Source: Actinacidiphila sp. DG2A-62 (GTDB lineage: Bacteria; Actinomycetota; Actinomycetes; Streptomycetales; Streptomycetaceae). Taken from it: a DNA stretch of 64,000 nt. The notes under the pieces were generated by a model. It saw only the letters and a list, made by a program, of their open reading frames with translations. It did not search any database and was not told the DNA's origin. Location of the stretch: positions 868,001 to 932,000 of the forward strand of contig NZ_JAYMGI010000002.1 in assembly GCF_035825295.1 (NCBI RefSeq), written 5' to 3'. Below are positions 43,042 to 64,000 of this stretch, one piece after another; position 1 is the first letter of the stretch; every line of letters starts with the position of its first letter. The translations under genes were made by a program, and so were the position numbers.

Positions 43042-43334
43042 GACGCCTTCCCCCCTCGACGCACCGCCCGCCGCGGCCGGCCCGGTCGTCCCCGGCCCGG
43101 TTCCCTCCCCGCTCGCGTGTGGCGCACCCGGAGTGTCTCATCGCCCACCCGCCGGCGGACGCGCGAGTCCAGCGCGGCCCCGGCGGTGCGCTGCCCACCA
43201 TCGCCCGCCGACGCGAGCCGCGCCGCGCCGCCGCCGCGTCCCGCCACACCCGCCCCAGGAGTTGACTGCGCAGCACCAAAGCGACCAGGATCGACCGCGC
43301 GAGAGTGACAACGTTGTCGCACGGAAGGATCGCC

Positions 43335-45785: not shown

Positions 45786-46718
45786 TCAGCGGCGGGCCCA
45801 GTGCTGGCCCCACGTCCCGGTGCAGGTGTAGAGCTTGACCGCCGCGCCGTCCGCGGAGTTCGCCTGCCACAGGTCGACGCACTTGCCGGACTGCTCGGCG
45901 TGGATCAGGCCGTCGCTGCCGAGGGTGAACTGCTGGGCGGGGTTGCCGCTGCAGTACGCGATCTGGACCACCGTGCCGTCGGTGGTGGCGCCCCAAGCCG
46001 CGTCCATGCACAGGCCCTTGGTGCGGATCGTGCCGTCGGAGGCGAACGTCCACTGCTGGTTGACGTTGCCGTTGCAGGACCACAGCTCCAGCGGGGTGCC
46101 GTCCGAACCCGCCGAACCGCTCAGGCACTTGCCGGACCGCGGGTTGTAGATCGTGCTGCCCGCGGGCGGCTTGGGCGCGGCGGGCGCCTTCTGCGTCGGC
46201 GCCTTGGTGGTGGTGGCGCTGCGCGGCTTCGAGGTGGTCGTGGTCGTCGTGCGGTGGGTGGTGGTCGTGCGGGTGCTGGTGCCGCCGCCACTTGCGGAGC
46301 CGCCGGTGCCGCCCGCGCCGCTGGAGCCGCCGCTGCCTCCGGTGCCTCCGGCGCCGCCGCCGGAGACGTGCTCGGGCGGCGCGGTGGGCGCGTGGGTGCG
46401 GGCGGCCGGATGCGCGGTGGTCGCGGACGGCGTGGGCGTCGTCGTGGTGGCGCTCGCGGCGGCCGTGGTGGCGGGGAGGGTCGCGGACGGTACGGCCGCG
46501 GTCCGCGCGGCGTCGGCGACCGTGTCGGCCGCGGGTCCGCCCTTGGCGCCGGAGCCGGCGGTGAGCAGCGAGACGAGCAGCACGACGGCGCCGACCACGG
46601 CGGCCGCGCCGGTCACGGTCGCCCAGACGCGGACCCCGGGCAGCAGTCCGCGGGGCGGGTCGCCGGGGTTGCGGGCGAAGGTGTCGGAGAAGCGGCTCGG
46701 GCGGTCGGGGCCGGTCAC
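45786..46718 (-). CDS. Membrane-anchored ricin-type beta-trefoil lectin
   Basis: 310 residues from GTG 46718 (GGAG upstream). A ~30 residue cytoplasmic start, one membrane helix (VTGAAAVVGAVVLLVSLLTA) and a long extracellular Thr/Ala/Gly-rich stalk (SATTTTPTPSATTAHP; GGGAGGTGGSGGSSGAGG) lead to a C-terminal beta-trefoil (residues ~190-310) with QxW motifs: NQQWTF, AQQFTL and GQHWAR, and cysteine pairs SGKCLS/LWSCNG and GKCVDL/LYTCTG. Such domains bind galactose- or mannose-type sugars. It is the third gene after the giant protein and the beta-helix/AAA protein, 84 bases downstream, so it probably belongs to the same operon as a surface-displayed sugar-binding component. Confidence 0.8.
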   Translation of the reverse strand: MTGPDRPSRFSDTFARNPGDPPRGLLPGVRVWATVTGAAAVVGAVVLLVSLLTAGSGAKGGPAADTVADAARTAAVPSATLPATTAAASATTTTPTPSATTAHPAARTHAPTAPPEHVSGGGAGGTGGSGGSSGAGGTGGSASGGGTSTRTTTTHRTTTTTTSKPRSATTTKAPTQKAPAAPKPPAGSTIYNPRSGKCLSGSAGSDGTPLELWSCNGNVNQQWTFASDGTIRTKGLCMDAAWGATTDGTVVQIAYCSGNPAQQFTLGSDGLIHAEQSGKCVDLWQANSADGAAVKLYTCTGTWGQHWARR

Positions 46719-46802
46719 GGGTGACTCCGGGGGTCTGAGGGGCGGGGGTGCGGGTGGGGTGCGGGTCGGCGGTCGGGTCGGGGCGGCGGTCTCACAGGTG
46801 CC

Positions 46803-49800
46803 TCACAGGTGCGCCGCCACCTGCTGCGGCAGGTCCTCGGTCTGCAGGCGCACCAGGTCCTCCGCGGTGGGGTCGGCGAGTTCAGCCACCCGCTGGGCCT
46901 GCCGCGCGGTCATCTCCTGGAAGACCTGGCGGGCCGAGCGGCCGTTGCCGAAGCCGCGGCCGCGCGGCAACCGGCCGAAGAAGGCGGCGAGTTCGGTGCG
47001 CGCCTGCTCGGTCAGCTCGTAGCAGTGCTCGGCCGCCTGGTGCTCGACGATCGAGACCAGTTCCGCGTCGTCGTAGTCGGTGAAGGTCAGGGTGTGGCTG
47101 AACCGGGAGGCCAGGCCGGGGTTGGAGGCGATGAAGCGGCCCATCTCGTGGGGGTAGCCGGCGGCGATCACCACGATGTCGTCCCGGTGGTCCTCCATCA
47201 GCTTGACCAGGGTGGCGACGGCCTCGGTGCCGAAGTCGTTGCCCATGTGCGCGGGGGCGAGGGCGTACGCCTCGTCGATGAACAGCACACCGCCCAGCGC
47301 CTGGGTGAAGGCGGCGGTGGTGCGCGGCCCGGTGTGGCCGACGTACTCGCCGACCAGGGCGCTGCGGTCGACCTCGACCAGGTGGCCGCGGCGCAGCAGG
47401 CCGAGCGCCTTGAGCAGGCGGCCGTAGAGCCGGGCGATGGTGGTCTTGCCGGTGCCGGGGTTGCCGGCGAAGACCAGGTGGCGGCCGAGCGGCGGCGCGG
47501 GCAGCCCGGCCTCCTCCCGCCGCCGGACCGTCTGCATCAGCTTGACCAGGGCGCCGACATCGCGCTTGACGCTCTCCAGGCCGACCAGCGCGTCGAGTTC
47601 GGCGAGCAGGTCGTCCAGGTCCTCCTCGACGGGCTCGGCGGGTCCGACGGCCGATTCGCCGGCCGGGTCCCCGGCCGGCGCGGCGGGCGCGCCGCCGTAC
47701 GGCACGGGCTCGGCGGACGGCGCGGGTCCGCCGGGGCCTGTCGGGCCGCCGGGGGCGCCCGGTCCGAGCGGGTGGCCGGGTCCCGCGGGGCCCACCGGGC
47801 CGCCCGGCGCCCCAGGCCCACCGGGCCGTACGGGTCCGCCCGGTCCCCCGGGGGCGCCAGGGCCGCCGGGGCCCACGGGCCCGCCCGGTCCCGTGGGGCC
47901 GCCGGACGCGGCGGCCGTGTGCGGCATGCTCGGCCGCCGCACGCCGTATGAGAAGCAGCCGTCGAAGGCCGGCCGCGCGCCGTCCTCCAGGCGGAGGTCC
48001 TCGGCGCAGTCGCGGACCCGGCAGCGGCGGAAGTGCGGCGCGGCGTCGCGCGCGACGTGCAGGGCGGGGAAGCCGGAGCCGGCCACCTCGCAGGAGGCGA
48101 ACACGCCGCCGGCGCCCTCGGCGAGGTAGATGCCGGTCTTGGCGCAGCCGTCGACCAGCAGCCCGGTGACGTCGGGGGCGGCGCCGGTCCACACCACCAC
48201 GCCTGAGCCGGCGCTGGCCTCGACCGAGCCGCCGCGCACCCGGGCCGTGCCGCCGGTGTCGACGACGATGCCGGCCGCGCCGGGCCCGGCGACCCTGACC
48301 TGCTCCAGGGCCGCGGCGCCGCCGCCGGCGATCCGCACGCCGATGGTCCCGGCGCGCAGCACCGCGCAGTGGTCGAGCACGGTGGGCGTCTGCGACTCCG
48401 CGTGGACGCCGGTCCCGGCTCCGGCGACCCGGCAGCCGCCGGCGGTGACGGCGGCCCGGTCGGCGGCGTGCAGGCCGGACATCGCGGCGCCGTCCACGGC
48501 GCAGTCGGCGAGTTCGACGCGGGCCGAGCCCACCGCGTGGACGCCGTGCTCGGGGCTGTCGCCGATCCGGCACTCGCGCAGCCGCACGGTGGCCTCGTCG
48601 GCGGCGTGCACGGCGCTGAACGCGGCGCCGGAGACCCGGCAGTCGACGAGTTCGGCGACGGCGGCGCCGAGCACCAGCAGGCCGTTGGCGCGCGATCCGG
48701 TGACCGCGCAGCCGGTGGCGGTCAGCCGCGCGCCGTCCTGGACCAGCAGGCCGCTGGTGGCGGCGCCGGTGATCCGGCAGTCGGCGAGTTCGGCGCGGGC
48801 CGAGCCGGTGAGCCGGACGCCGACCGCGCCGGGCGCCTCGATCCGCAGGCCGGAGGCGACGACCCGGCCGCCGTCGTCGGCGAGCAGGGCGCTGCCGCCG
48901 GTGTCCCGCACGGTGCAGTCGGTGAGCGCGAGGCCGGCGCGGTGGCGGACCCGGATGCCGGAGCCGGTGGCGCCGAGCAGCCGCAGCCGGTCGGCGGCGA
49001 ACCGGGCGGCGCCGGTGAGCAGGATGCCGATGCCGTCGGCGGCCTCGACGCGGGTGTCCTCGGCGCGGCCCCTCGCGGTGCCGGACAGGTGGAGGGCGGC
49101 GCCGCCGGTGGCGGTGACGCGGCAGCGCTGGAGGAGCAGCGCGGGGTGCGCCGGGCCGTCCATGGCGTCCGGGTCGTCCCGGCCCGCGGGACCGGCCGGG
49201 CCGCCGCCCGGCTCGTGGAGACGGCGCAGACCGCCGAGGCCGCTCCCCCGGTCGAGGCCGTCGCGACCGCGCGGGCCGCCCGAGCCCGCGCCGCCGGAGC
49301 CGCCGAAACCGTCCTCGCCGCCGAAACCGCCCGCGCCGCCGGCGTCGCCCGCGCCGCCGCCGTCCTCGGTCCCGAAGGGGTCCCCGCCGCCGACGCCGTA
49401 GTCCGGATCGGCCTGCGGGCTGCCCGGGTGCGCGTCGCCGCGTCCCGCGCCCTTCGCCTCGATGCCGCCGCCGGAGACCGCGCAGTCGTGCAGCGCGAGC
49501 GCCGACCCGTCCAGGACCAGCACGGCCGGGGTGTACGAGCCGGCCGCGTCGCCGCCGCGCACCGCGAACCCGTGCACCGCACAGGTGCGGGCGGTGACCG
49601 TGAGCGCGGGCGTCTCCTCGTCGTCGGAGAGCAGCACCACGCTGCCGGGCCCGTGCTCGGTCATCAGCGTCAGCGACCGGTCGACGGTGAGGTTCTCGCG
49701 GTACTCGCCGGGCGCGACGAGCACGGTGTCGCCGGCCCGGGCGGCGCGCACCGCGGCGGTCAGCGTGCGGTGGGCGCCGCGGCCCTTGGGCGCGACGGTG

Positions 49801-49817
49801 TGGACGCGGTCGGTCAC
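46803..49817 (-). CDS. Right-handed beta-helix repeat protein fused to a CbxX/CfqX-type AAA+ ATPase (EccA-like C-terminal half)
   Basis: 1004 residues from GTG 49817, whose GTGA overlaps the stop of the giant protein gene. Residues 1-~640 form a parallel beta-helix (start AAVRAARAGDTVLVAPGEY; many repeats such as VELADCAVDGAAMSGLHAAD) interrupted by a Gly-rich loop near residues 140-200. Residues ~637-698 are a collagen-like Gly-X-Y tract. Residues ~735-1004 are an AAA+ domain with Walker A FAGNPGTGKTTIARLYG, Walker B GVLFIDEAYALAP, sensor region GYPHEMGRFIASNPGLASRF and the C-terminal lid GFGNGRSARQVFQEM. The AAA+ part is that of EccA/CbbX proteins, but EccA normally has an N-terminal TPR. 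It probably acts in the type VII pathway of this locus, perhaps engaging the giant substrate (inference). Confidence 0.85.
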   Translation of the reverse strand: MTDRVHTVAPKGRGAHRTLTAAVRAARAGDTVLVAPGEYRENLTVDRSLTLMTEHGPGSVVLLSDDEETPALTVTARTCAVHGFAVRGGDAAGSYTPAVLVLDGSALALHDCAVSGGGIEAKGAGRGDAHPGSPQADPDYGVGGGDPFGTEDGGGAGDAGGAGGFGGEDGFGGSGGAGSGGPRGRDGLDRGSGLGGLRRLHEPGGGPAGPAGRDDPDAMDGPAHPALLLQRCRVTATGGAALHLSGTARGRAEDTRVEAADGIGILLTGAARFAADRLRLLGATGSGIRVRHRAGLALTDCTVRDTGGSALLADDGGRVVASGLRIEAPGAVGVRLTGSARAELADCRITGAATSGLLVQDGARLTATGCAVTGSRANGLLVLGAAVAELVDCRVSGAAFSAVHAADEATVRLRECRIGDSPEHGVHAVGSARVELADCAVDGAAMSGLHAADRAAVTAGGCRVAGAGTGVHAESQTPTVLDHCAVLRAGTIGVRIAGGGAAALEQVRVAGPGAAGIVVDTGGTARVRGGSVEASAGSGVVVWTGAAPDVTGLLVDGCAKTGIYLAEGAGGVFASCEVAGSGFPALHVARDAAPHFRRCRVRDCAEDLRLEDGARPAFDGCFSYGVRRPSMPHTAAASGGPTGPGGPVGPGGPGAPGGPGGPVRPGGPGAPGGPVGPAGPGHPLGPGAPGGPTGPGGPAPSAEPVPYGGAPAAPAGDPAGESAVGPAEPVEEDLDDLLAELDALVGLESVKRDVGALVKLMQTVRRREEAGLPAPPLGRHLVFAGNPGTGKTTIARLYGRLLKALGLLRRGHLVEVDRSALVGEYVGHTGPRTTAAFTQALGGVLFIDEAYALAPAHMGNDFGTEAVATLVKLMEDHRDDIVVIAAGYPHEMGRFIASNPGLASRFSHTLTFTDYDDAELVSIVEHQAAEHCYELTEQARTELAAFFGRLPRGRGFGNGRSARQVFQEMTARQAQRVAELADPTAEDLVRLQTEDLPQQVAAHL

Positions 49818-52800
49818 GTCTGCGGCGTCCCTTCGCCGTCGGGGCCCGGCCGCGGCGCGGGCTGCGGGGTGGGTACTGGCGCCGGTTCCGGTACGGGGGC
49901 GGGCTCCGGCACGTACCACGACGGGTGCAGGTCGGCGCGGAACAGGTTGGTCAGCGCCCAGGTCGTCATCTTCTCCGGCAGCTTGAAGGCGAACTGCGCG
50001 ACGAAGTCGCCGAAGCCCTGCCGGTGCCACAGCCGCGCGCCAAGACCGTTGAGCACCAGGTTCTTGCCGAGTCCCGTGGTGACCGTGCCGGTCAGCGAGG
50101 AGGCCGCGCTGATCAGTCCGTCGAGCGCGGCCGCGCCGCCGGACAGCGTCACGGAGTGGCCGTCGGCGTCGGTGACCCCGAACACGGCGGCGTTCATGCT
50201 GCCGTTGACCCAGCCGCTGAGGACGCTGACGCCGCCGCTGTAGGCGAAGTCGTAGGTGCCGCCGCGCCAGCGGATCGGCGTCTCGTTGCCGGCCCACTCG
50301 TTGGACCAGTGCTTGTCGTGGTTGAACGGGTGCCGGTTCCAGCCCTTGCCGCCGTCGACGTTGGCCAGGCCCATCCGCCAGTCGCCGCTGTGCCGGAGCA
50401 TGTCCAGGCGGTTGTCGTGGACGAGGGTGCCGACCGCGGTCTTCAGCCCGGAGCTGACCGAGGCGTTGGCGAACGCCTTGAGGGCGTCCTTGCCGGTGAA
50501 CGGCTTGTTCTGGATGTCGGCGACGATCGCGTTGATCGCGAGGTTCGCGGTGAACTCCAGGATGAACTCCTGGAAGAACTCGATGGCGGCCTTCTCCGCG
50601 ATGAGCTTCCACTGCGGCTGGTACAGCGCCTCGCCCAGGCGCGGCGCGTCGAAGCCGGCGAAGTCCCACTGGAGCCGGTTGGCCTCGCGGATGCGCCGGC
50701 CCAGCCGCGCAGCTCGGTGAACGCGCCGCGGAAGTCGACCTCGCGGCCGGTGAGGTGGAACCGGCCGAAGGCGTCGGACTCCCAGACGAAGCCGCCCGCG
50801 GTGCGCTGGGCGATGACGTGCCCCGCGGCGTCGTAGTGCCGCCACTGGCCGAGCCAGCTGTCCTTCTCCAGGAAGCCGCCGCCGGGCAGTGCCGTGCGCT
50901 CCCTGACCACCGCGCCGTGGTCGAACTCCTTCCAGGTGCCGGCTGGCGGGGCCTGGTCGCCGCCGCCGAGGAACTCCCTGACCCGGCCGTTGACCGCGGT
51001 CGCGGGCACCTCGCGGACGACGACGGGGGCCGCGCCGTGCGCCACGACGGTGTCCTGGAAGCGGGTGGCGCCGTCGACCCAGGTGTTCGACCAGCCGCCG
51101 CGCCCGTCGCCCAGGGAGGGGTCCCACCACTGCCGTACGTGCGCGCCGTCGCCGTAGTCCACCGGCCGTCCGGCCCGGTCGAACTTCTGCCACTGCCAGC
51201 TGTGCGCGCCGGTCGCCGGGTCGGTGACCCGCCAGGAGTCGACGTAGTGGCTGTCCAGGACGGTGCGCACCCGCACCGCCTGGTCGCCGGCCGGGCCGCG
51301 CTCGAAGTGCACGAAGGAGTCGTCGTACGGGGTGGGGCCGTTGTAGCCGCGGCCGTACCTCACCGGTCCGGTGGCGGGCGCGCCGGCGCCGTCGCCGCGG
51401 TCGGTCCAGAACCACGAGCGGGTGTCGGCGCGGCCGTCGTAACCGGTGAAGTTCCAGCGGGTGTTGCCGCTGGGGACGCTCATCTCGACGGTGTGCGGGG
51501 CGCCGTCGGCGCCGGGCCATTGGTCGGTGCGGCCGACGATGGCGCCGTGCGGGTCCTTGAGCACCGAGACGTGCGGGTCGGCGAGGCCGCCGGTCACCTT
51601 GAACTCGCGGACCGTGCCGTCGGCGTAACCGGCCCGCGCCACCTGCCAGTTCGCCGCCTGGTTCGGGTGGTACCAGTCGTTCGGGCCGGCCGCAGGGTCG
51701 AAGCGGTCCTCCCAGATCCGGCCGTCGGGCATGCCGGCGGTGTCGACGCGGTGGCCGGAGGGGTGGCCGGCGCCCTCGGTCCACGGGGTGAAGTGCGGGT
51801 CGGCGTGGACGCCGGCGGGCAGCGGCACGGTGTCGCCGACCTTGAGCGTGTTGCCGTTGCCGAGCTTGAACGAGCCGCGCACCAGGGTGCCGTCGGGGGC
51901 CAGGTCGAAGAAGCTCTCGTTCATGCCGGTGAAGCGGTAGCCGTGGGTCTGCGCGCCGGTCGCCGTATCCGTCCGCGTCCAGTGCGACATCTGGAAGCGG
52001 GTGTCGCCCTTGAGCCAGGCGCGGCCGTCGAAGGCGGCCTCGGGGATGCCCATGCCGATCACCGGGTTGCGGCGCACCCACTGCGGGGGGCGCTGCTCGG
52101 ACCAGCGGGTGACCTCCAGCAGGCCGCCTCCGCCGGGGAGTTGCTCCAGGGCGCCGGTGGGCTTGCCGTGCGGGGACTGGGAGTTCCACAGGGTGTGTCG
52201 GACCGGGCCGCCCGGCGTGGTGACGGTGACCGTGCGCGGGGCGCCGTTCGCGTCGAGGGTGAACTCCTTGTACTGCAAGGCGTTGCCCTGCGGCAGGTGG
52301 GCCGGTCCCCACTGGCGCTGGGCGACCGCGCCCGCGCCGTCGTGGCCGAGCCGGTCGGTCCAGCCGCCGTCCCAGTCCCAGGTCCGCGTGCCGGTGGCGT
52401 TCGGCACCGGGACGCGGTCGGGCTTGTCGTAGCGCATCCAGCGCCAGATGCCGCCGTCCTTGTAAGCGAAGACGCTGCCGCCCACGCCCTGCCGGAAGTC
52501 GTGCACGGTGCGCAGGTGGTGGTCGACGCCCTTCCAGTCCTTGCCGTCCATGGTGCCGTAGTGGCGGGTGCCCCAGTTGACGGTGGCGCCGGTGCCGTCG
52601 ACCTGGGTCCACCGGGTGCGCTGGCTGCCGTTCCAGCGGACGAAGCCGGTGCTGTCGATGGAGCGCACCGAGTCCAGGGCGCCGCCGCCGGGCAGCGGCC
52701 TGCGGTCGAAGATCTCCACGGTGGTGCCGCCGGGCTTGGCGACCAGCCGGACGCGCCCGGCGTCGTCGGCGACGTCGATGGCGCCGGAGTGCAGCAGGTC

Positions 52801-55800
52801 GCGGCCGGCTCCGGTGACGGCGGCGCCGTTGCCGTCCACCAGCTGCCAGCTGCGCTGCCCCGGCCGCAGGTCGAAGTGCCGGTCGGGGACGGCCCGGCCG
52901 TCGCGGGTGACGTTGATCCGCTGCACGGTGAGCCTGCCGTCGGCGCCGAACTGGCGGTACTCCCCCGCCGTCGGGCCGCCGCCGGGGCGGGTGATCCGCC
53001 ACTCGCCGCCGTGGTGGGTGAGGTCGGCGAGGGGGTTGCCGTGCGCGTCCAGGCCGAGGTGGACGGGGCCGGCGGGGCGGCGCCGGCCGCGGCGGGCGCC
53101 GGATGGCGGGTGACGCCGAACTGTCCCAACTGCCGGTCGTCGAAGCCGTGCAGCATCACCGCGTGGTCGCCGAGCGCGCCGGTGGCCGGGTCGAAGGTGC
53201 GGTAGTCGCCGCGGGCGGTGTCGGTGACCCGCACGGTGGCCGGGGCGCCGTCGGCGGCCAGGTCGACGCGTACGGCCTGGTGCGGCACCGGGGCCCAGTC
53301 GCCGTCGACCAGGGTGCCCGCGTGCGCGCCGGGAGGGGTCTCGGCGTAGCCGAAGAAGTGGCCGTTTTCGTCCAGCAGTTGCCGGCCGTCGCCGATGTGG
53401 GTGCGGGTGGCGTCGTAGAGCGTGTACGCGGCGGGGCGGCCGGGGGCGCCGCCGGTCTCGACGCGGATGCCGCCGCCGAGGTGGTCCATCGCGCGGCCGG
53501 GCCGCAGGTCGCCGGCGAGCCCCTCGACGTGGCCGGCGCCGATGGCGTCGGCGGGCATCACCGCGAAGCCGTGCACGGTGCCGTCGGCGCCGCGCAGCGG
53601 GGCGCCGATGCCGACCGCGGCGCCGGTCGCGGGGTCGTAGCGGACGAACTCGCCGCCGGTGCCGTCCTGGATGACCTTCAGTCCGGTGACCGTGCCGGCG
53701 CCGTCGGTCTCGGCGACGACAAAGTGGCCGGGCACCGGCGTGCCGTCCGGGCCGATCCAGCGGGCCGGGGCGCCGTTGCCGGGCGCGGGGAACTCCAGGG
53801 CCCCGGTGTCGATGCCGCCGGTGGTGATCCGGTGGCCGTCCCACAGGTGGTCGCCGATCGGGTCGAAGACCTGGTAGCCGGGCGCGGCGCCGGCCGCGCC
53901 GGGGTGGTCGACGCGCAGCGAGCCGTCGCCGAGCACGGTGACGGTGTGCGGGGCTGCCGCGCTCTCGCCGGGCAGTTCCAGGTGGGCGTGGACGCCGTCC
54001 CGGGTGTAGGCGATGTGGACGGCGCTGCCGCGCGGGACGCCGCCTCCGCCGCCCAGCGGCACGACCTCCACGAGCCGGCCGCCGTCGACGCCGTCGACCG
54101 TGATGACCGGCACGTCGGAGGCGCCGCCGGGCAGCCGCGGGCGCTCCTTGAGCGACTGGAGCATCAGGTCGCGCAGCGCGTGGTCCATCGCCACCGGGTT
54201 GACGCCGACCTCCCGCAACTGCCGTACCGCGTCGGCGAACGTCTGCCGGGCCTCGCCCAGGCGCACCTGAGCGTGCTCCAGGGGACTGACGCCGTGGGAG
54301 GGACCGCCGGGGAAGGAGGCGAGGTAGTCGACGTGCTGCTCGGCCTGTCGCAGGTCGTGCGCGGCGAGCTGGAAGCGGCCCCACGCCTCCGTCCGGGGCG
54401 CCCGCATCGGGTCGTCGGCGGCGCCGAACAGCGCGGCCCTGCTCTCGCTGTCGGCGTGCCATGCCTGGTCCAGCTCGCCGCCGGTCAGCCGCGGCGGCCG
54501 CGTGCGCGGCGGCTGCGCCGCGGGCAGGGCCTGCGCGGCGGCGACGTGGGCGGGCTCGACGTTCGCGGCCTCGACGTTCGCGGCCTCGACGTGGGCGGGC
54601 CGCACGGCGGCGGGCTGTCCGTGCGCGCCGTCGACGTGCGCGGGCGGCACGGTGGCCGGGTCGACGCGCGTGGGCTGTCCGTGGGCCGGGTCGAGGTGCG
54701 CCGGGTCGACGTGGGCCGGATCGACGCGCGGCGGCTCGCTGTGTGCGGGCGTGGCGTGGACGGGTGTGGCGTGGACGGGTGTGGCGTGCACGGGTGTGGC
54801 GTGCACGGCCTGCGGAGTGGGCGCGGCGTGCACCGGCACGGGCGTCGGCGCCGCCTGGAAGCCGGACCCGCCGAAGTGTCCCAGGCCGCCGTGGTCCAGC
54901 AGGTCCATGGCCGCGCCCAGGCGCTGCGCGGGCGGCAGGTCGAGGCCGCCGGGCGCGGTGAAGGCGGCCGGCGCCTTGCCCTTGCCGCCGAGGCCGGCGA
55001 CCGGCTCGGCCGGCTGCGGCAGGTCGGTGCCGGCGTGGGTGCCGTAGTGCGCGGTGGCCACCGGCGGGACGCTCGCCCCGGGCGTGGGCGCCGTGGCGGC
55101 GGCGACCGTGTGCGGCGTCACGTCGTGCGTCGGCGCGACCGGCGTCGTGTTCACGTTCACGTCCACGGAGTGCGGGGGCGCGGTCGTCGCGCGGACGTCG
55201 ACGGTGTGGACGCTCGCCGCGTTCACGGTCGTCGTGTGCACGTCCACGGAGCGCACGTCCACGCCGTGCACGTCCGCCGCGTTGACACTCGTCGTGTGCA
55301 CGTCGACCGTGTGGACGTCCGCCGCGCTCACGGTCGTCGTGTGCACGTCCACGGCGTGGATGTCCGCCGTGTGCGGCGCGGCCGGGGGCGGGGCGGCGGT
55401 GACCGGCGTGGTGGTCGCGTCCACGGTGTGGACGACGGACGGCGGCGGGGTCGCCGTGATCGTCGCGGGGGTGACGTCGGCCGTGTGGGCGAGGACCGGC
55501 GTCGGCGTGATGTCGGCGATGGCGTGGCCGGCGCCGGCCGTGGCGGCCGGACCGAGGTCGGCGGCCACGTGGTGCGCGATGGTGGCGGTGATGTGACTGT
55601 CGGACAGGCCGCCCAGGTGCGGGGTCGGCACGGTCGCGGTGGTGACCTCCAGGTGCGAGATCGGCGAGATGTGGACCGTGGCGCCCGCGTCGACGCCGAC
55701 GTGCACGGCGGGCGGCGTGGTGGTGGCGATGTGCGCGGCGTCCGGGACGGGGATCGCGGCGTGCACCGCGGCGGGCGGCAGCACCAGGTCGGTGGCCTGG

Positions 55801-57533
55801 TGGATCACGGCGGGCGGCGCGATGCTCGCGGTCAGCTGGTGGATCGTCGGGTTCGGGATGCCGCTGACGCCGGCGTGTTCCGCGCCCACCGCGATGTGCA
55901 CGGGCGGCGGGGTGAACAGGCCCGCGACCGGCTCGGGCAGCTTGCTGAACGCGGGCGCGGCGTCGACGGTGACGCCGTCCGCGCCGTGCGTGATGGTGGC
56001 CCAGTCGCCGATGGTGACCGAGGACAGTTTGCCGACCGGGATGTCCAGCAGCGCGTCCATCCGCAGGCTCGCCTGGTGGGAGAAGGTCAGCGGCGCGCCG
56101 AAGTCGGTGCCGATGGTGAGCGCGGGCGGGTTGGGCACCAGCAGACCCGGCGCGGTGAAGCCGGCGGCGCCGGGCGCGTGCGGCAGCGGCATCGGTCCGA
56201 GCGCGTTGGTCCACTGGTCGACCTGGATGCGGGTGGCGGCCAGGTCGTGGGTCGGGATGTCGACCAGCGGGTTGACGTTGTGCACCGTCGCCGGGGTCGG
56301 GATGTGGCTGACCCCGCTGCCGACGGCCTGCACGGTCGGCCGTACGGTGGCCGGGGGCACCGCGCCGAACCGGAACTTGCCGAAGACGCCGCGGTCGATC
56401 ACTGCGATCTTGGTGGCGCCGAAGACGCCGAACTCGCCGATCTCGTCGCCCTCGGCGGGCAGGAAGATCCGCAGCCACTTGGCGCCGCCGAACTCCGCCT
56501 TGGCCCAACTGGCGGAGTTGACGCCGAACTTGGCCACCGCCGGGCCGATGCCCTTGACGAGTCCGGGGATGCCGGTGATGCCCTTGATGACGAACAGCGC
56601 GCCGGACTTGACGATGGTCGCGCCGAGTTGGCCCAGGCCCTTGCCGACGCCCATCACCCACAGGCCGCCGGCCTTGGTCCAACTGCCGGTGGCCAGCGCG
56701 AGGTCGTGCAGCGACGGCAGCGCGACGAACGGCTTGGCGATGCCGCGCAGCATGTCCTTGAACAGGTCGAGGGAGGCGATCGAGGCGGCCTTGATGCCGT
56801 TCTTGAGGAGGTTGGCGCCCTTGGTCAGCAGGGAGAGGATCGGCAGCGCCCGGGTGCTCGGAGCGATCAGGCCGAGCGCGGACAGGAACAGGTCGAGGAT
56901 GCCGGCCTTGCCCTCGGCGAAGTCCACCGCGGTCTTGATGAACAGCGTGAGGTTGACCGCGATCGCCAGCAGCGCCACCGGGCCGCCGAAGATCAGTGCG
57001 GGGATCACCAGGGCGATGGCGATCCACTGGAAGATCTCCCAGAACTCCGCGCACGGCGACACCGGGGACTTGATGTGCCCGGAGGACTTGCGCAGCGTGG
57101 AGGTCGCGGTCTTCGCCGCCTCCGACTGGGCGCTGCCGGCCGCCTTGGCGTTGGCGGCCAGGGTGTCGCGGTCGGGGTCGTCCTGGGACAGGCCTCTGCC
57201 CTGGTCCAGCGCGGCGTCGGCCTTGCTCTGCGCGTCGGACATGGCGTCGGCGTAGGTGCTCAGGGCGCCGCTGGACCACTCGAAGGCGTCCGCGATGCTC
57301 TGCACGAAGCCGCGCAGCCGGCCGCTGATCTGGTTGCGCAGCTCCTCCGCGGTCTGTCCGACGAAGGTCTCGGGGCCGGTCTTGTTCAGCACCGTCTCCA
57401 TCGCCGTGTCGATCTTCCTGGCGGTCTTGCCCAGGGAGCCGATGGACTCGGCGACGGTACGGATGCGTGCCGGGTCGCCTGGCGTGGGGTCGCCGTGCAG
57501 ACCGAGGGCGTCCCAGTCCGTCGGGCGTGACAT
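49814..57533 (-). pseudogene. Giant putative T7SS-secreted protein with His-rich repeats and W-rich repeats, two frame breaks
   Basis: About 2573 residues from ATG 57533 (AGGAGG seven bases upstream). Residues 1-~110 match the putative T7SS secretion-signal domain (WDALGLHGDPTPGDPARIRT; helical WXG-like pair). Residues ~160-240 are hydrophobic (WIAIALVIPALIFGGPVALL). Residues ~545-1018 are a low-complexity stalk full of VHT/VHAT/DPAH repeats. From ~1020 a helical region leads to beta repeats with many Trp and Asp-Gly turns (TWDWDGGWTDRLG; RWNFTGYDGRADTRSWFW). A C-terminal region (YQPQWKLIAEKAAIEFFQEF; FKLPEKMTTWALTNLFRADL) ends in a PAPVPEPAP tail. Single bases seem lost at 53074-53077 and 50700-50702; the flanking frames join cleanly, so the gene may be intact in the cell. 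It resembles a polymorphic-toxin or wall-associated protein, but no toxin fold is recognised. Confidence 0.75.
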
Positions 57534-57899
57534 CCGGGCCTCCTGGTGCCGCCGAGTGGTGCCGAGTGGTGCCGAGTGGTGCCGAGTGGTGCCGAAGCGC
57601 GTCCGCCTTGACCACGTACGGGAGCGCGCCGCGGTTCAGTCCCGCCCCGGTTCTCTTTCCGCCCGCCCCGCCCGCCGCGGGAGTCCGGTCGAACGCCCCG
57701 GCGCGGGCCCGGGATCGGCGGCGACACAGGCCCCGGGGGCGGCGGCGCGGGCGGGCTCCGAGGGCGGCGGCGCGGGCGGGGTGAACCGTCCGGGGCGCTG
57801 GGACGTGAAGGGAGGGGGCCGCACGGCCCGCCCCGGGGCACGCCCCGGCCCGCAGCGGACCGCCGCGCGCACCGAGCCGGCAGCCAAGGAGGACGGACA
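57534..57899. promoter_or_regulatory. Divergent promoter region of the type VII locus
   Basis: A 366-base gap lies between the start of the minus-strand giant-protein operon and the plus-strand WXG-like gene, so both promoters should be here. The left end contains the 10-bp tandem repeat annotated separately. The right half is extremely GC-rich and I see no clear promoter hexamers. Confidence 0.4.
57551..57590. repeat. Four 10-bp tandem repeats in the leader of the giant gene
   Basis: The unit GCCGAGTGGT is repeated exactly four times (57551-57590), followed by a partial copy (GCCGA). On the minus strand the array ends about 17 bases upstream of the start codon, just ahead of the AGGAGG ribosome site. 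One unit is close to one DNA turn, so copy changes would shift leader length in 10-base steps. Confidence 0.85.
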
Positions 57900-58748
57900 G
57901 TGGTCGACTTCGCCCTCGACTACGGGGTCCTGCACTCGGCCCGCAAGGACCTGCACGACCTCGCCGACGAGATCGGCCCCACCCTCAAGAGCAGCGACTA
58001 CGCCACCCTCGGCGAGGACAGCTCGGGCGTGGCCGGCGACGTGTTCGGCAACGCGGAGCTGGCCGCCGCCTTCAGCACGCTGTACTACCGCTCCAAGCAC
58101 CCGATGGAGAAGGCCGAGGACGACCTGCGCAAGCTCGGCGACACCTTCGGCGCGGTCGCCGACGGCTTCTTCAACATCGACGCGCAGATCGCCGAGGGCG
58201 CGGGCGTGATGGGCCAGAACCTGGGCCTGGACGACTGGCGCGGCAAGCACGACGCGTGGCTCGGCCACGACAAGTGGGTGGCCGACAACAAGCTCTGGCA
58301 GCAGTACCTGGCCAACAAGGGCGCGTGCGACGTGGACGACATCTCCACGCTGCCGGACTTCTGCAAGGCCACCGACCCCGGCCCCGAGCCCACCGATCCC
58401 GGCCCGCCGCCCACCGACCAGGTGATCCACACCCCGGACGGCGGCACCGTGCACACCACGCTGACGCTGGACGACAAGTACAACGTGACCACCGAGAAGA
58501 CCACCGTCACCACCGGCGGCGGCCAGACGTACACCTCCACCACCGCGTACAAGCCCGACGGCCGCTCGTACGTCACCGACACCACCTACGCCGACAACAG
58601 CAGCAGCCACGCCGACGTGACGATCAACGCGGACGGCACCGGCACGATGACCGTGACCGACGGCGACGGCAAGGTGAGCACCTACTCCCGCAGCGGCCCC
58701 GGCGCCAAGTGGGACCAGACCTCCGGCGAGGGCATGGACGACGACTGA
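57900..58748 (+). CDS. WXG-like helical N-terminal domain with C-terminal beta repeats, probable T7SS substrate
   Basis: 282 residues from GTG 57900 (AAGGAGGA upstream). Residues 1-~150 are helical with two blocks (LDYGVLHSARKDLHDLADEI; PMEKAEDDLRKLGDTFGAVA) like WXG100/LXG-type proteins, then a region with tryptophans (LDDWRGKHDAWLGHDKW) and a Cys pair. A Pro-rich hinge (DPGPEPTDPGPPPTD) joins ~110 residues of Thr-rich beta repeats (TTLTLDDKYNVTTEKTTVTT) resembling YD-type turns. It is divergent from the giant gene and 103 bases before the WXG100-size gene, so the pair are likely co-exported partners. No catalytic motif is seen. Confidence 0.65.
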   Translation: MVDFALDYGVLHSARKDLHDLADEIGPTLKSSDYATLGEDSSGVAGDVFGNAELAAAFSTLYYRSKHPMEKAEDDLRKLGDTFGAVADGFFNIDAQIAEGAGVMGQNLGLDDWRGKHDAWLGHDKWVADNKLWQQYLANKGACDVDDISTLPDFCKATDPGPEPTDPGPPPTDQVIHTPDGGTVHTTLTLDDKYNVTTEKTTVTTGGGQTYTSTTAYKPDGRSYVTDTTYADNSSSHADVTINADGTGTMTVTDGDGKVSTYSRSGPGAKWDQTSGEGMDDD

Positions 58749-58851: not shown

Positions 58852-59163
58852 ATGCCCAACATCTCCCTCGACTACGAGCAGATCGACACCGTCTCCGGCA
58901 AGCTGGACGCCGCCAACGAGAACATCGTCCCGATGCTGAACCAGCTGCTGACCGACGTGAACGGGCTGCTGGACAACGGCCTGGTCTTCGAGCAGTCCAG
59001 CCCGGCGCTGCGCGAGTCCTACCAGAAGTTCAACACCGCGCTGCTGCAGGCGGTCCAGGGCATCAAGGACTTCGCCTCGCAGTTCCGCGGCATCAAGGAC
59101 TCGATGTCGCAGAACGACGCGGACATGGCGCAGAAGATCCGCGACGCCGCGAACAAGGGCTGA
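58852..59163 (+). CDS. WXG100 family-like protein (EsxA/EsxB type) without tryptophan
   Basis: 103 residues from ATG 58852. The size and pattern of two helices joined by a short turn (LDYEQIDTVSGKLDAANENI; SPALRESYQKFNTALLQAVQ; IKDFASQFRGIKDSM) fit WXG100 export partners. The turn reads NGLVFEQSS; there is no Trp anywhere in the protein, so the name-giving motif is lost. It probably forms a dimer with another WXG-type protein and is recognised by EccC. It follows the WXG-like gene at 57900 and a strong hairpin follows it. Confidence 0.75.
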   Translation: MPNISLDYEQIDTVSGKLDAANENIVPMLNQLLTDVNGLLDNGLVFEQSSPALRESYQKFNTALLQAVQGIKDFASQFRGIKDSMSQNDADMAQKIRDAANKG

Positions 59164-60795: not shown

Positions 60796-63700
60796 TCAGT
60801 CCTGCTGCTTGAGCGGGGTGAGCGGCACCTGCACGGTCTGCACGGTGCCGGCCGGGCCCGAGGTGAAGGCGCGGCCGGCCGGGGCGTAGGACCGCACCTG
60901 GTTGAACGACAGCCGGGCCCCGATCAGGTCGCCGTCGCCGGTGGCCTTGGGCGACAGCAGCAGACCGCGCCGCGAGCGCTTGGCCGCGGTGAGCCAGCTG
61001 CCCAGACCGAGTGTGAGGGTCTCGGTGGGGGCGGCGGCGACCAGGCCGAGACCGCGTTCGCGGCCCGCGACGGCGACGCCCTTGAGCACCTGCTCGGCGG
61101 CGCCCATGGCGATCAGGTCGGCGTCGTCGACCATCACGACGCCGGGCCCGCCCAGCGCCTCCAGCGCCTCGCGCACCGCGTCGGCGGACGGGTCGGGATC
61201 GCTGAACACCCGGGCCCCCGGGTGCGCCGCGAGCGAGCGCAGCGGCGAGTCGCGGGGCGCGAGCACCACCAGCGAGGTGCCGCCGGCCAGCAGGGACACG
61301 GCCAGGCAGGCCAGCACGTTGCTGCGGCCCGAGCCGGGGCCGCCGGCCACCACGAAGGTCGGCGCGGGGCCGGTGAAGTCGACGCCGACCGCTCCCCCGT
61401 CGTCGCCGCCGATGCCCAGCAGCCCCCACAGCGGGCGGCGCAGTTCCCGCGGCACCTTCTCGTAGGCGTCGGCGAAGGCGACGGTCGCGGGCAGCGGCGC
61501 GACCGGGAAGGGCCGCCGGGCGGCGGGCACCCGGGCGTCGCGGGAGGCCGCCGCCGCGGCGATCTCGCGCAGCGCCGCGGCCTGCGCCTGGCCGCTCTCG
61601 TCGTCGGCGAGCACCGCGATCTGCGTCTCGGTGCGGCTGATCAGGTGCCAGCCGCGGCCGTCGGGCACCGAGGCGGGCACCTGGCTGGGCAGCATGCCGA
61701 GCAGGCTGTAGTCGGAGCGGTCGCTCTGCCGCAGCAGCACCTTGTTGTCGTTGTGCGCGGCGATCCGGCCGGCGATCAGGGAGCGCTCGGAGGTGGCGAT
61801 GACGTGCACCCCGGCCGCGGCGCCCTCCCGCAGCAGCCGGGTGACGTCGTTGAACAGCCGCCCGTTGTCGTAGTCGTCCAGCACCGGGGCGAGCGCGTCC
61901 CAGCCGTCGATGAACAGCATGACGTGCGCGGGCCGTTCGGCGGCCGGCAGCAGTTCGCGCAGCTCGACCAGGCCGGAGCAGGCGCGGGCCGCGCACATCT
62001 CCTGACGCCTGGTCAGCTCCGAGGTGAGCCGGTTCAGCAGCCGGTCCAGGTGCTCCAGGTCGTGCCGGGAGACCACCGCGCCGCAGTGCGGCAGCTTCGC
62101 GACCGCGGCCAGTCCGCCGCCGGCCGCGTCGATGCCGTACATGTGCAGGTCGGCGACGCCCACCCGGCGGGCCGCGGAGCCGGCGATGGTGCGCAGGGCC
62201 TGGGTGCGGCCCGAGCGCGGCGCGCCGATCAGGTACAGGTGGCCGAAGGTCGCCAGGTCCACGGTGGCCACCCGGCGCTCCTGGAGCTGCGGCACGTCCT
62301 CCAGTGCGTACGGGATCAGCGGCGGCAGCGCCCCGGAGCGGCCGCCGGCGGGCGCGCCGGGGCGTTCCACCTCGGGCAGGTCGTCCAGCCGGACCTTCTC
62401 CTCCAGCGCGGGCAGCCAGGGGCTGGGCTGCGGGGTGAAGTCGTCCAGCAGGCCGGCCGCCTCGCGGATCGCGCCGACCAGCGCCTGCAGGTCGGTGGGG
62501 TGCAGCGGTCCGGGGGCCTCGGCGCCGTCCTCGTCGCCCGAGGGCAGCGCGACCGGGCGACCGAGCCGGTTCCACGGCAGCGCGGCGGCGCGCACCGCGG
62601 CCCGCGCGGCGTTCGCCTCGCCGCCGTCGGCCGGCGGTCGCTCGGCGCCCACCCACGCGGACTGGAAGGGGATCGCGGACCGGTGCCCGTAGCGGACCAG
62701 GGCGCGGCCGGGGGTGCCCGGGGAGATGTGCACGGCGTCGCTGGTGTCGATGATGTCCTGGCTCTCCACCACGTCGGTGACGCGCAGCGCGATGCGCAGG
62801 TTGGTGTTGGCCTTGATGTCGGGGGTGACGGCGCCGGCCTGCCGCTGGGTGGCCAGGATCAGGTGGATGCCGAGCGAGCGGCCGCGCTGGGCGATGCTGA
62901 TCAACCCGGTGATGAACTCGGGGACTTCGCGCACCAGCGTGGCGAACTCGTCGATGACCAGCAGCAGTCGGGGCAGCGCGGGCAGTTGCGGGTCGGCGGC
63001 CCGCTTGGCCCGGTACTCGGGGTGGTCCTTGGCGTCGTGCTCGGCCAGCAGCCGCTCCCTGCGCCGCAGTTCGGCGCCGAGCGACTCCAGGGCGCGCTGC
63101 ACCAGGTGGGCGTCGAGGTCGGTGACCATGCCGAGGGTGTGCGGCAGGTGGGCGCACTCGCGGAAGGCGCTGCCGCCCTTGTAGTCGACCAGCACGAAGG
63201 TGAGTTCGTCGGGCCGGTTGGTCGCCGCGAGCGAGGCGACGAAGGTCTGGAGCAGTTCGGACTTGCCGGAGCCGGTGGTGCCGGCGACCAGGCCGTGCGG
63301 CCCGTCGCGGACCAGGTCCAGGCTGAGCGGCCCGTCGAAGCCGGTGCCCAGCACGAAGGAGGTGGTGGCCGGGCGGCGGCGCCAGCGGGCCGCCAGCGCC
63401 TCGGCGTCCGGGGGTTCCTGCCGCAGCAGTTCCAGCAGTCGGACCTGCTCGGGCAGTCCGCTGTCGTTGTCGGGGCTGACGTCGTGCAGCGGCGCGAGCG
63501 AGCGGGCGACCCGCTCGCACCAGGCCGGCGCCACCAGGTCGGCGCGCACCCCGGACACGTCGGGCATGCCGGTCCTGCGGATGGTCAGGTCGGCGCCGGC
63601 CAGGGTGAGCACGGCCGCGCACTCCTCGGGCAGCAGCCGCTCCTGCTCGTCCAGGCACAGGCTGAACACCCGCACGGCCGGGCCGTCGGTGAGCACCTGC

Positions 63701-64000
63701 ACCATGCCGGGCACGTCGCGCAGCCGGCGGGCACTGTCGGCGACGACGAGGATGTCGGGCGCGGTGAACATGGCCCGGCCCATGGAGGAGCCGAGGGCCC
63801 GCTGCCGGGCCTGGATCTGCGAGACGAGTTCGGTGACGCGGTTGGCGACGCTCTCGGAGTCGTTGCCGACCGCCACCAGCGGGCCGCCCGCGCCCGGCGG
63901 CCGGGCGTGCGGCAGCCAGCGCACCCACGCCCACTCCTGCGCCCGGGTGTCCTCGGTGAGCAGCACGACGTGCAGGTCGCGCGGGCTGTGCAGGACCGCG
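60796..64000 (-). CDS. eccC: EccC-like type VII secretion FtsK/SpoIIIE ATPase (5' end outside window)
   Basis: The frame is open to the right edge; about 1068 C-terminal residues are present. Three FtsK/SpoIIIE modules are visible. The first has an intact Walker A (GTTGSGKSELLQTFVA, near 63264-63296) and Walker B (LPRLLLVIDEFATLV). The second (GAPRSGRTQALRTIAG; VMLFIDGWDALAPV) and third (GGPGSGRSNVLACLA; VVMVDDADLIAMG) have Arg in place of the Walker A Lys, as expected for the degenerate regulatory modules of EccC. The missing N-terminus would hold the membrane helices and DUF domain. EccC is the motor that recognises WXG100 dimers, two candidates for which are encoded 1.6-3 kb away on the other strand. 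Confidence 0.92.
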   Translation of the reverse strand, partial: AVLHSPRDLHVVLLTEDTRAQEWAWVRWLPHARPPGAGGPLVAVGNDSESVANRVTELVSQIQARQRALGSSMGRAMFTAPDILVVADSARRLRDVPGMVQVLTDGPAVRVFSLCLDEQERLLPEECAAVLTLAGADLTIRRTGMPDVSGVRADLVAPAWCERVARSLAPLHDVSPDNDSGLPEQVRLLELLRQEPPDAEALAARWRRRPATTSFVLGTGFDGPLSLDLVRDGPHGLVAGTTGSGKSELLQTFVASLAATNRPDELTFVLVDYKGGSAFRECAHLPHTLGMVTDLDAHLVQRALESLGAELRRRERLLAEHDAKDHPEYRAKRAADPQLPALPRLLLVIDEFATLVREVPEFITGLISIAQRGRSLGIHLILATQRQAGAVTPDIKANTNLRIALRVTDVVESQDIIDTSDAVHISPGTPGRALVRYGHRSAIPFQSAWVGAERPPADGGEANAARAAVRAAALPWNRLGRPVALPSGDEDGAEAPGPLHPTDLQALVGAIREAAGLLDDFTPQPSPWLPALEEKVRLDDLPEVERPGAPAGGRSGALPPLIPYALEDVPQLQERRVATVDLATFGHLYLIGAPRSGRTQALRTIAGSAARRVGVADLHMYGIDAAGGGLAAVAKLPHCGAVVSRHDLEHLDRLLNRLTSELTRRQEMCAARACSGLVELRELLPAAERPAHVMLFIDGWDALAPVLDDYDNGRLFNDVTRLLREGAAAGVHVIATSERSLIAGRIAAHNDNKVLLRQSDRSDYSLLGMLPSQVPASVPDGRGWHLISRTETQIAVLADDESGQAQAAALREIAAAAASRDARVPAARRPFPVAPLPATVAFADAYEKVPRELRRPLWGLLGIGGDDGGAVGVDFTGPAPTFVVAGGPGSGRSNVLACLAVSLLAGGTSLVVLAPRDSPLRSLAAHPGARVFSDPDPSADAVREALEALGGPGVVMVDDADLIAMGAAEQVLKGVAVAGRERGLGLVAAAPTETLTLGLGSWLTAAKRSRRGLLLSPKATGDGDLIGARLSFNQVRSYAPAGRAFTSGPAGTVQTVQVPLTPLKQQD

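What the first reader, a model, noticed from the sequence alone, without database searches (positions are those of the whole stretch)
45786..57533. Type VII-linked three-gene operon: giant signal-bearing protein, beta-helix/collagen/AAA+ ATPase, surface lectin
Seen: overlapping stop/start between the giant gene and the AAA+ gene, then an 84-base gap to the lectin, all on one strand, with WXG-like genes and an EccC ATPase close by. Established: T7SS-signal domains mark EccC clients, and EccA-type AAA+ proteins handle such clients in mycobacterial ESX systems. Inference: the AAA+ protein, with a beta-helix in place of the EccA TPR, is a dedicated partner for the giant substrate, and the lectin holds it or its target at the cell surface. 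I do not know a described system with this set.
Basis: partly seen in the sequence, partly recalled or inferred. Interest (0 to 1): 0.72.

Follow-up and report, generated by a model that had tools for sequence, protein, structure and literature searches.

The report
Type VII cassette for giant proteins
Actinobacteria of many genera share a gene cassette that sets a type VII-like secretion ATPase beside a giant protein and an AAA+ protein that likely readies the giant for export, often with a predicted membrane lectin; the set matches none of the type VII subtypes in the one published catalogue we read, so it would be a new route for exporting very large, probably toxin-like proteins.

Summary
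Giant, beta-helix/AAA+ gene and lectin lie in order on the minus strand, with a 4-base GTGA stop/start overlap and an 84-base gap. But here the giant is split over three reading frames; in all 27 relatives checked the matching stretch is one open frame. Other genes of this genome are split too, so assembly indels are likely.

The pairing is not chance: the beta-helix/AAA+ gene directly follows the giant in 26 of 26 relatives with room downstream. Upstream lie a WXG100 gene (27/27), a small gene without known family (25/27), an EccC/EssC-like ATPase (26/27), a one-TM protein (22/22) and an ECF sigma factor (19/22). The lectin is looser: a TM protein directly follows in 13 of 29 (ricin match in 11). 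Giants with unrelated bodies (up to 6,345 aa), some ending in Scabin-like domains, use the same module. The ATPase misses every curated EccC/EssC cut-off and branches apart from both. Three of 28 cluster-bearing draft genomes show neither EccD nor EccB.

Best reading: a separate type VII variant for giant, probably toxin-like clients, with a dedicated AAA+ partner. Export and AAA+ action are untested.

The parts
45786..46718 (-). Membrane lectin: short N-terminal tail with the signature FSDTFARNPGDPPRGLLPGVRVW, predicted TM aa 34-52, Ser/Thr/Gly-rich linker, Ricin_B lectin aa 189-307
   Evidence: Pfam Ricin_B_lectin E 9.7e-25; TM and charge by hydropathy; signature shared with relatives
46803..49817 (-). 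Beta-helix/AAA+ protein, 1004 aa: beta-helix (best stretch aa 333-480; NosD-like 284-431), collagen-like linker, CbbX/EccA-type AAA+ with Walker A GNPGTGKT at 785 and lid 937-996
   Evidence: GTG start overlaps the giant's stop
49814..50704 (-). Giant, C-terminal piece in a third frame: conserved, predicted helical region
   Evidence: matches in relatives; helical bundle in the model of relative L004
50695..53100 (-). Giant, middle piece in a second frame: predicted beta-rich, Rhs-like repeats
   Evidence: model of L004 and Foldseek E 6.6e-9 to an Rhs core, but TM-score 0.06
53076..57533 (-). Giant, N-terminal piece: T7SS_signal aa 19-116, hydrophobic stretch near aa 171-195, Ala/Pro/Thr/Val-rich linker aa 441-1010
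   Evidence: Pfam PF21725; hydropathy and composition
57900..58748 (+). 282-aa gene divergent from the giant, no known family, conserved in the cluster
   Evidence: no Pfam match over cut-off and no NCBIfam match; 25 of 27 relatives
58852..59163 (+). WXG100 protein, 103 aa
   Evidence: PF06013 E 2.5e-5, 24.9 bits under a 27.3 cut-off; TIGR03930 E 1e-5 under cut-off; 27 of 27 relatives
60796..64000 (-). EccC/EssC-like FtsK ATPase, C-terminal part; the gene runs on to 65637 in window numbering (1613 aa in all)
   Evidence: 26 of 27 relatives. The one-TM protein (66461-67801) and ECF sigma factor (67798-68463) lie beyond the window edge

Best explanation
The locus is a conserved type VII-like secretion cassette whose EccC/EssC-like ATPase is predicted to export the giant protein, while the translationally coupled beta-helix/AAA+ protein likely binds the giant in the cytoplasm and keeps or makes it export-ready. 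Shown by calls: the conserved gene set and order, the T7SS_signal head on the giant, the ATPase and AAA+ families, reuse of the module by giants of unrelated body. Inferred: export by this ATPase with the WXG100 protein and the small divergent gene as partners or co-substrates; the one-TM protein (EccC-DUF-like in its model) as a membrane subunit; the beta-helix as the client-binding part that stands where EccA has TPRs; the membrane lectin as an outward-facing anchor or receptor that helps hold the giant or its target at the surface; the giant as a toxin-like cargo in an Rhs-like shell; the ECF sigma factor as the cluster's own switch.
For: Adjacency of giant and AAA+ in 26 of 26 relatives with at least 3 kb downstream (11 genera, 5 families), 12 with the 4-base overlap and 3 with a 1-base overlap. 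Upstream set: EccC 26/27, WXG100 27/27, 282-aa gene 25/27, one-TM protein 22/22, sigma 19/22. T7SS_signal at the giant's head. Giants of unrelated body (L133/L141; 6,345 aa on a Streptomyces plasmid, L182) carry the same N-terminus, ATPase, WXG100 and beta-helix/AAA+, so what stays constant is signal head plus module, as a client-partner reading expects. AAA+ rows of giant loci all fall in one supported 52-row clade (46 giant rows, 3 EccC-only, 3 other), apart from those of canonical T7SS. Cassette ATPases form their own supported group. Three of 28 cluster-bearing genomes have neither EccD nor EccB matches. Scabin-like domains end three of the unrelated giants.
Against: No experiment and no complex model: AAA+-giant contact, export and membrane topology are untested. 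The AAA+ module is nearer CbbX than EccA1. 37 of 53 beta-helix/AAA+ loci in the AAA-centred sample lack a giant as judged here (L180 has an unclassified 1,972-aa ORF upstream), and a group of them lies in a conserved chromosomal setting with no T7SS gene detected, so the family as a whole is not tied to giants. 24 to 25 of 28 cluster-bearing genomes do carry EccD matches, so most could lend a canonical pore. The window's own giant is frame-broken. The TM-score of the giant model to Rhs cores is only 0.06. The window giant's C-terminus is conserved across genera, unlike a typical variable toxin tip, and no immunity gene was recognised.
Confidence: 0.58

Rival explanations
1. The AAA+ protein is a CbbX-like remodeller that folds, matures or holds the giant (or guards the cell against it) in the cytoplasm, with no part in export; coupling only keeps the two in step.
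For: Nearest solved relatives are CbbX chains (E 3e-58), ahead of EccA1 (2e-42); SpoVK and CbbX models outscore EccA; overlapping stop/start in 15 of 26 fits co-folding as well as export; no separate immunity gene was recognised in the cluster.
Against: The same AAA+ family sits beside canonical T7SS clusters and the ATPase/WXG100 set is nearly always present, which points to secretion.
Confidence: 0.22
2. The giant leaves through the genome's canonical ESX (EccB/C/D) machinery; the cassette's own ATPase is an accessory or regulator.
For: This genome has EccD and EccB only at the two canonical clusters at 2.22 and 6.89 Mb, none near the window; 25 of 28 cluster-bearing genomes have an EccD match, 23 over the cut-off.
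Against: Of the 5 genomes without EccD over cut-off, EccB was sought and missing in 4: three clean cases and one with an EccD match 0.35 bits under cut-off. All are drafts. The cassette has its own full-length ATPase and an EccC-like one-TM protein.
Confidence: 0.15
3. In this strain the giant is a decayed pseudogene: both frame breaks are real.
For: Two frame changes in one gene while all 27 relatives checked hold the stretch in one frame.
Against: At least four other genes of this genome are also split: EccC at 3.396 Mb and EccC at 6.884 Mb (the latter could be a natural EccCa/EccCb split), AAA+ at 2.22 Mb, EccB at 2.224 Mb. That is the pattern of an indel-prone assembly (completeness 95.57% in 2 contigs). 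Codon bias persists through all three pieces.
Confidence: 0.12
4. The lectin is a hitchhiker, not part of the system.
For: A TM protein of this kind directly follows AAA+ in only 13 of 29 loci; in others the next gene is unrelated or on the other strand.
Against: Where present it keeps an N-terminal signature before the TM, while the outer domain varies (ricin mostly; weak B_lectin in L041, weak Golvesin_C in L160 and L175). It occurs in 18 of 43 giant loci, at one end of the cluster or the other, after two of 20 pattern hits were dropped by eye as false; the same pattern hits 2 of 37 non-giant loci.
Confidence: 0.25

Closest known systems
T7SSa (ESX), with EccA
   Same: FtsK/EccC-type ATPase, WXG100 protein, a cytoplasmic CbbX-type AAA+ ATPase beside the locus
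   Different: No EccB, EccD, EccE or MycP recognised in the cluster; ATPase below EccCa and EccCb cut-offs; AAA+ has a beta-helix in place of TPRs and scores 216.7 against an EccA cut-off of 466.65; client of about 2,400 aa or more
T7SSb (Ess/Yuk) and its LXG/Rhs toxins
   Same: EssC is the best-scoring ATPase model (513 bits); a single WXG100 protein; Rhs-like clients
   Different: 513 against a 778 cut-off; no EssA, EssB or EsaA match among the cluster genes scanned; ATPase branches apart from two Firmicute EssC
T7SSc-j catalogue (Garrett 2024, PMC11217815), T7SSd above all
   Same: Uncanonical T7SS sets around an EccC/EssC ATPase and WXG100; T7SSd is Actinomycetota-only; TsfV of T7SSf is an AAA+ component
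   Different: T7SSd is described with a kinase (TsdD), TsdH and the large TsdI; none was recognised here. The held text has no occurrence of Streptomyces, beta-helix or lectin
Polymorphic toxins with a T7SS_signal head
   Same: N-terminal T7SS_signal, long repeat body; three unrelated-body giants end in a Scabin-like domain
   Different: The window giant's own C-terminus is conserved across genera and matches no family; no immunity gene recognised
CbbX / SpoVK AAA+ ATPases
   Same: AAA+ module: TIGR02881 254 bits, TIGR02880 226 bits; CbbX nearest solved
   Different: Fused to a beta-helix and collagen-like linker; below both cut-offs

Membership tests
T7SSa (ESX) | EccC ATPase over curated cut-off (TIGR03924/TIGR03925) | tested here: not met
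   383.2 < 509.15 and 315.2 < 346.55 for the full 1613-aa protein
T7SSa (ESX) | EccB and EccD in the cluster | tested here: not met
   In this genome EccD only at 2224936 and 6888211, EccB only at 2223617-2224902 and 6889589; none near 868-936 kb
T7SSa (ESX) | EccE and MycP in the cluster | tested here: inconclusive
   The cluster genes scanned matched neither at the thresholds used; no genome-wide search was made for these two
T7SSb (Ess) | EssC over curated cut-off (TIGR03928) | tested here: not met
   513.4 < 778.4
T7SSb (Ess) | EssA, EssB, EsaA in the cluster | tested here: not met
   No match among the cluster genes scanned against NCBIfam; none named in the annotated plasmid copy either (an incomplete gene table)
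T7SSd | Kinase TsdD, TsdH and large Sec-dependent TsdI beside the ATPase | tested here: inconclusive
   No kinase match among cluster genes scanned; no Tsd sequences were compared. A Rothia plasmid ATPase beside a kinase and an Rhs gene branches nearest to this group on a long branch
Type VII secretion, in the wide sense | EccC/EssC-like FtsK ATPase plus WXG100 protein | tested here: met
   FtsK_SpoIIIE E 5e-56 and TIGR03928 E 1.2e-153; WXG100 E 2.5e-5, under its cut-off; both in nearly all relatives
Type VII secretion, in the wide sense | ATPase-dependent export of the substrate | not testable with these tools
   needs secretome of wild type and mutant
EccA | TIGR03922 over cut-off | tested here: not met
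   216.7 < 466.65
EccA | N-terminal TPR domain | tested here: not met
   Beta_helix E 7.7e-32 and no TPR match
EccA | Gene beside T7SS genes | tested here: met
   window cluster; both canonical clusters of this genome
Polymorphic toxin | Secretion-signal head, long repeat body | tested here: met
   PF21725; beta-rich model
Polymorphic toxin | Variable C-terminal toxin domain | tested here: inconclusive
   Across the module bodies and ends differ, but in the window giant's own family the C-terminus is conserved
Polymorphic toxin | Immunity gene beside the toxin | tested here: inconclusive
   none recognised among cluster genes; unknown immunity families would be missed

The most novel reading that the evidence does not exclude
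An uncatalogued type VII subtype of actinobacteria that needs no T7SSa pore and is specialised for giant cargo (about 2,400 to 6,345 aa): its own sigma factor, an EccC-like membrane partner, an ATPase, a WXG100 protein, a beta-helix/AAA+ unfoldase coupled to the cargo gene, and a swappable membrane lectin that docks cargo or target. Different toxin bodies are swapped behind one signal head.
Probability: 0.42. Interest if true: 0.86.

Novelty: new variant of a known kind. Interest (0 to 1): 0.68.

Why it matters
EccA's job in type VII secretion is still given as unknown in the 2024 survey (passage seen in PMC11217815). Here a related AAA+ protein is coupled one-to-one to a single, very large, easily tracked client, which turns the question of what these AAA+ proteins do into a direct test. 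If right, it also adds a type VII variant that spreads through Streptomyces and kin, plasmids included, and carries some of the largest predicted bacterial secreted proteins.

Tried and rejected

Literature: nine searches of a library that lacks most subscription papers and all preprints; no description of this set turned up in the listings. PMC11217815: outline, passages and sections 7, 9 and 16 seen. PMC8401907: passages only. All other papers: search listings only. Background on EccA's TPRs and on Scabin as an ADP-ribosyltransferase is recalled, not from a call.
Full report
What is there. On the minus strand the window carries a giant gene (57533 to 49814), a 1004-aa beta-helix/AAA+ gene (49817 to 46803) and a 310-aa lectin gene (46718 to 45786). 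The giant's stop and the AAA+ start share a GTGA, and 84 bases separate AAA+ and lectin. The giant's head is a T7SS_signal domain, followed by a hydrophobic stretch and an Ala/Pro/Thr/Val-rich linker. The AAA+ protein has no long hydrophobic segment at its start and carries Walker A and B motifs, so it is taken as cytoplasmic (inference). The lectin has five Lys/Arg before and one just after its single predicted TM, so its ricin domain is predicted to face outward.

Correction to the observation. The giant is not one reading frame here. Coding signal runs in one frame to about 53.08 kb, in a second to about 50.70 kb, in a third to the stop. In 27 relatives checked, the stretch that matches the second and third pieces is one open frame; in 26 of the 27 that frame also runs through the N-terminal match or to the contig edge (L029 is the exception). 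Other genes of the same genome are split as well: EccC at 3.396 Mb, EccC at 6.884 Mb (possibly a natural split), AAA+ at 2.22 Mb and EccB at 2.224 Mb. Assembly indels are the simplest reading. Intact copies exist in relatives.

The neighbourhood. A scan of genome contigs with an alignment of 19 giants gave 80 loci, the best 80 of 105. Forty-two belong to the giant's family by the criteria; the other 38 match the N-terminal domain or fall under those criteria (L047 among them was treated as giant-type). In 26 of 26 with at least 3 kb downstream the beta-helix/AAA+ gene comes next on the same strand; 12 overlap by 4 bases, 3 by 1 base, the rest lie within 49 bases. These 26 are filed under 11 genera in 5 families. 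Of 27 with at least 7 kb upstream, 27 have WXG100, 26 the ATPase, 25 the 282-aa gene; of 22 with 9.9 kb, 22 have the one-TM protein and 19 the sigma factor. The window's TetR gene and the membrane-protein gene between WXG100 and ATPase gave no match in these loci.

The lectin. Among 29 loci with an AAA+ gene in L003-L047, a TM protein follows directly on the same strand in 13, with a ricin match in 11 (L024 has only 300 bases left downstream). Its N-terminal signature before the TM is shared while the outer domain varies. In L010, L011, L012 and L014 a protein with the signature sits at the other end of the cluster, and L013 has a weaker match there. In all, 18 of 43 giant loci show it after two of 20 pattern hits were dropped by eye; the same pattern hits 2 of 37 non-giant loci. 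So the lectin belongs to the system in part of the family only.

The reverse test. The beta-helix domain was sought in 61 genomes of the family including the window's own; 60 have some match. Sixty stretches were fetched, the better hits first, so the sample is not random; three of them are extensions. Fifty-three hold a beta-helix/AAA+ gene. A giant lies directly upstream in 16 of the 53; 13 of these match the window giant and three (L130, L133, L135) do not. L180 has a 1,972-aa ORF there that was not classified. Others sit beside canonical EccB/C/D clusters, both of this genome's included, and a group lies in a chromosomal setting without T7SS genes detected. The samples overlap: L125, L127 and L134 carry AAA+ domains identical to L004, L018 and L031. 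In a quick tree of 83 AAA+ domains all 46 giant-linked rows fall in one supported clade of 52, apart from the canonical T7SS rows.

Other giants, same module. The giant of L133/L141, about 5,900 aa by coordinates, has the same N-terminus (42% over 275 aa) but a different body; ATPase (54%), WXG100 (47%), the 282-aa gene (28%) and the one-TM protein (30%) lie upstream. A Streptomyces sp. NBC_00019 plasmid has, in order, RICIN protein, beta-helix protein, a 19,038-base hypothetical CDS (6,345 aa), hypothetical protein, WXG100, FtsK/SpoIIIE protein and hypothetical protein; tblastn ties head, AAA+, lectin, WXG100, ATPase and one-TM protein to the window's. A Streptomyces clavuligerus plasmid has the set too, with a 2,800-aa giant. 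The ends of the L133, L135 and L182 giants match Scabin-like, which makes toxin-like cargo probable for these; L130's giant, the window giant and the L004 giant show no such domain.

Which secretion system. The full ATPase (1613 aa) scores under all curated cut-offs: EssC 513.4 of 778.4, EccCa 383.2 of 509.15, EccCb 315.2 of 346.55. In a quick tree of 45 ATPases the cassette type forms a supported 29-row group with some giant-less actinobacterial relatives, apart from canonical EccC with one mycobacterial EccC, and apart from two Firmicute EssC; long branches meet there, so the root and deep order are open. Of 28 cluster-bearing genomes 25 have an EccD match and 23 one over cut-off. EccB was sought only in the five without EccD over cut-off: four have none, among them three with no EccD match at all and one with a full-length EccD match 0.35 bits under cut-off. 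These are drafts of untold completeness. The standard 14 control genomes rang for neither family; the other cluster genomes and the window's own genome are the positive controls.

How it most likely works. Shown: gene set, order, coupling, families. Inferred: the sigma factor turns the cluster on; the giant is made, met at once by the AAA+ protein made from the overlapping start, held or unfolded, handed with WXG100 to the ATPase and one-TM protein, and exported; the lectin outside holds it or its target. The constant signal head over unrelated bodies is the best argument that the AAA+ protein and ATPase serve the client class and not one body.

Against what is known. The 2024 survey of T7SS subtypes (PMC11217815; sections 7, 9, 16 and passages seen) lists T7SSa-j. 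Only T7SSd is a further Actinomycetota type, defined with a kinase, TsdH and TsdI, and the held text never mentions Streptomyces, beta-helix or lectin. EccA is given there as of unknown function. Nine literature searches brought no description of this set, in a library that lacks most subscription journals. The fair filing is a new variant of type VII secretion.

Organism.

Noticed in passing
window 57551-57595: A 10-base unit (GCCGAGTGGT on the + strand) repeated 4.5 times with 100% match, in the gap between the giant's start and the divergent gene at 57900; a possible site of length variation in a shared promoter region.
   Followed up: no
G000:C2:3395987-3401015 (L124): A second EssC-type ATPase of the same genome lies beside another T7SS_signal protein but without a beta-helix/AAA+ gene in the 20 kb fetched.
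   Followed up: partly
L121 and L122 (2.22 and 6.89 Mb of the same genome): Both canonical T7SS clusters carry a beta-helix/AAA+ gene of another clade, apparently in EccA's place.
   Followed up: partly
genome G000: Eight T7SS_signal matches in the genome, seven over the cut-off; the giant is one of them.
   Followed up: no
L133, L135, L182: Giants of about 3,100 aa or more (one edge-cut, one 6,345 aa) with the same kind of AAA+ neighbour end in Scabin-like domains.
   Followed up: partly
window 43305-45698: A GH92 glycosyl hydrolase, convergent with the lectin gene.
   Followed up: no
L123, L139, L147-L156, L162, L177: A conserved chromosomal beta-helix/AAA+ paralogue group, in this genome too, with no T7SS gene detected nearby and no known role.
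   Followed up: partly
L021 (Streptomyces sp. SID13031): Its AAA+ groups with Kribbella in the tree; the record's name may be wrong.
   Followed up: no
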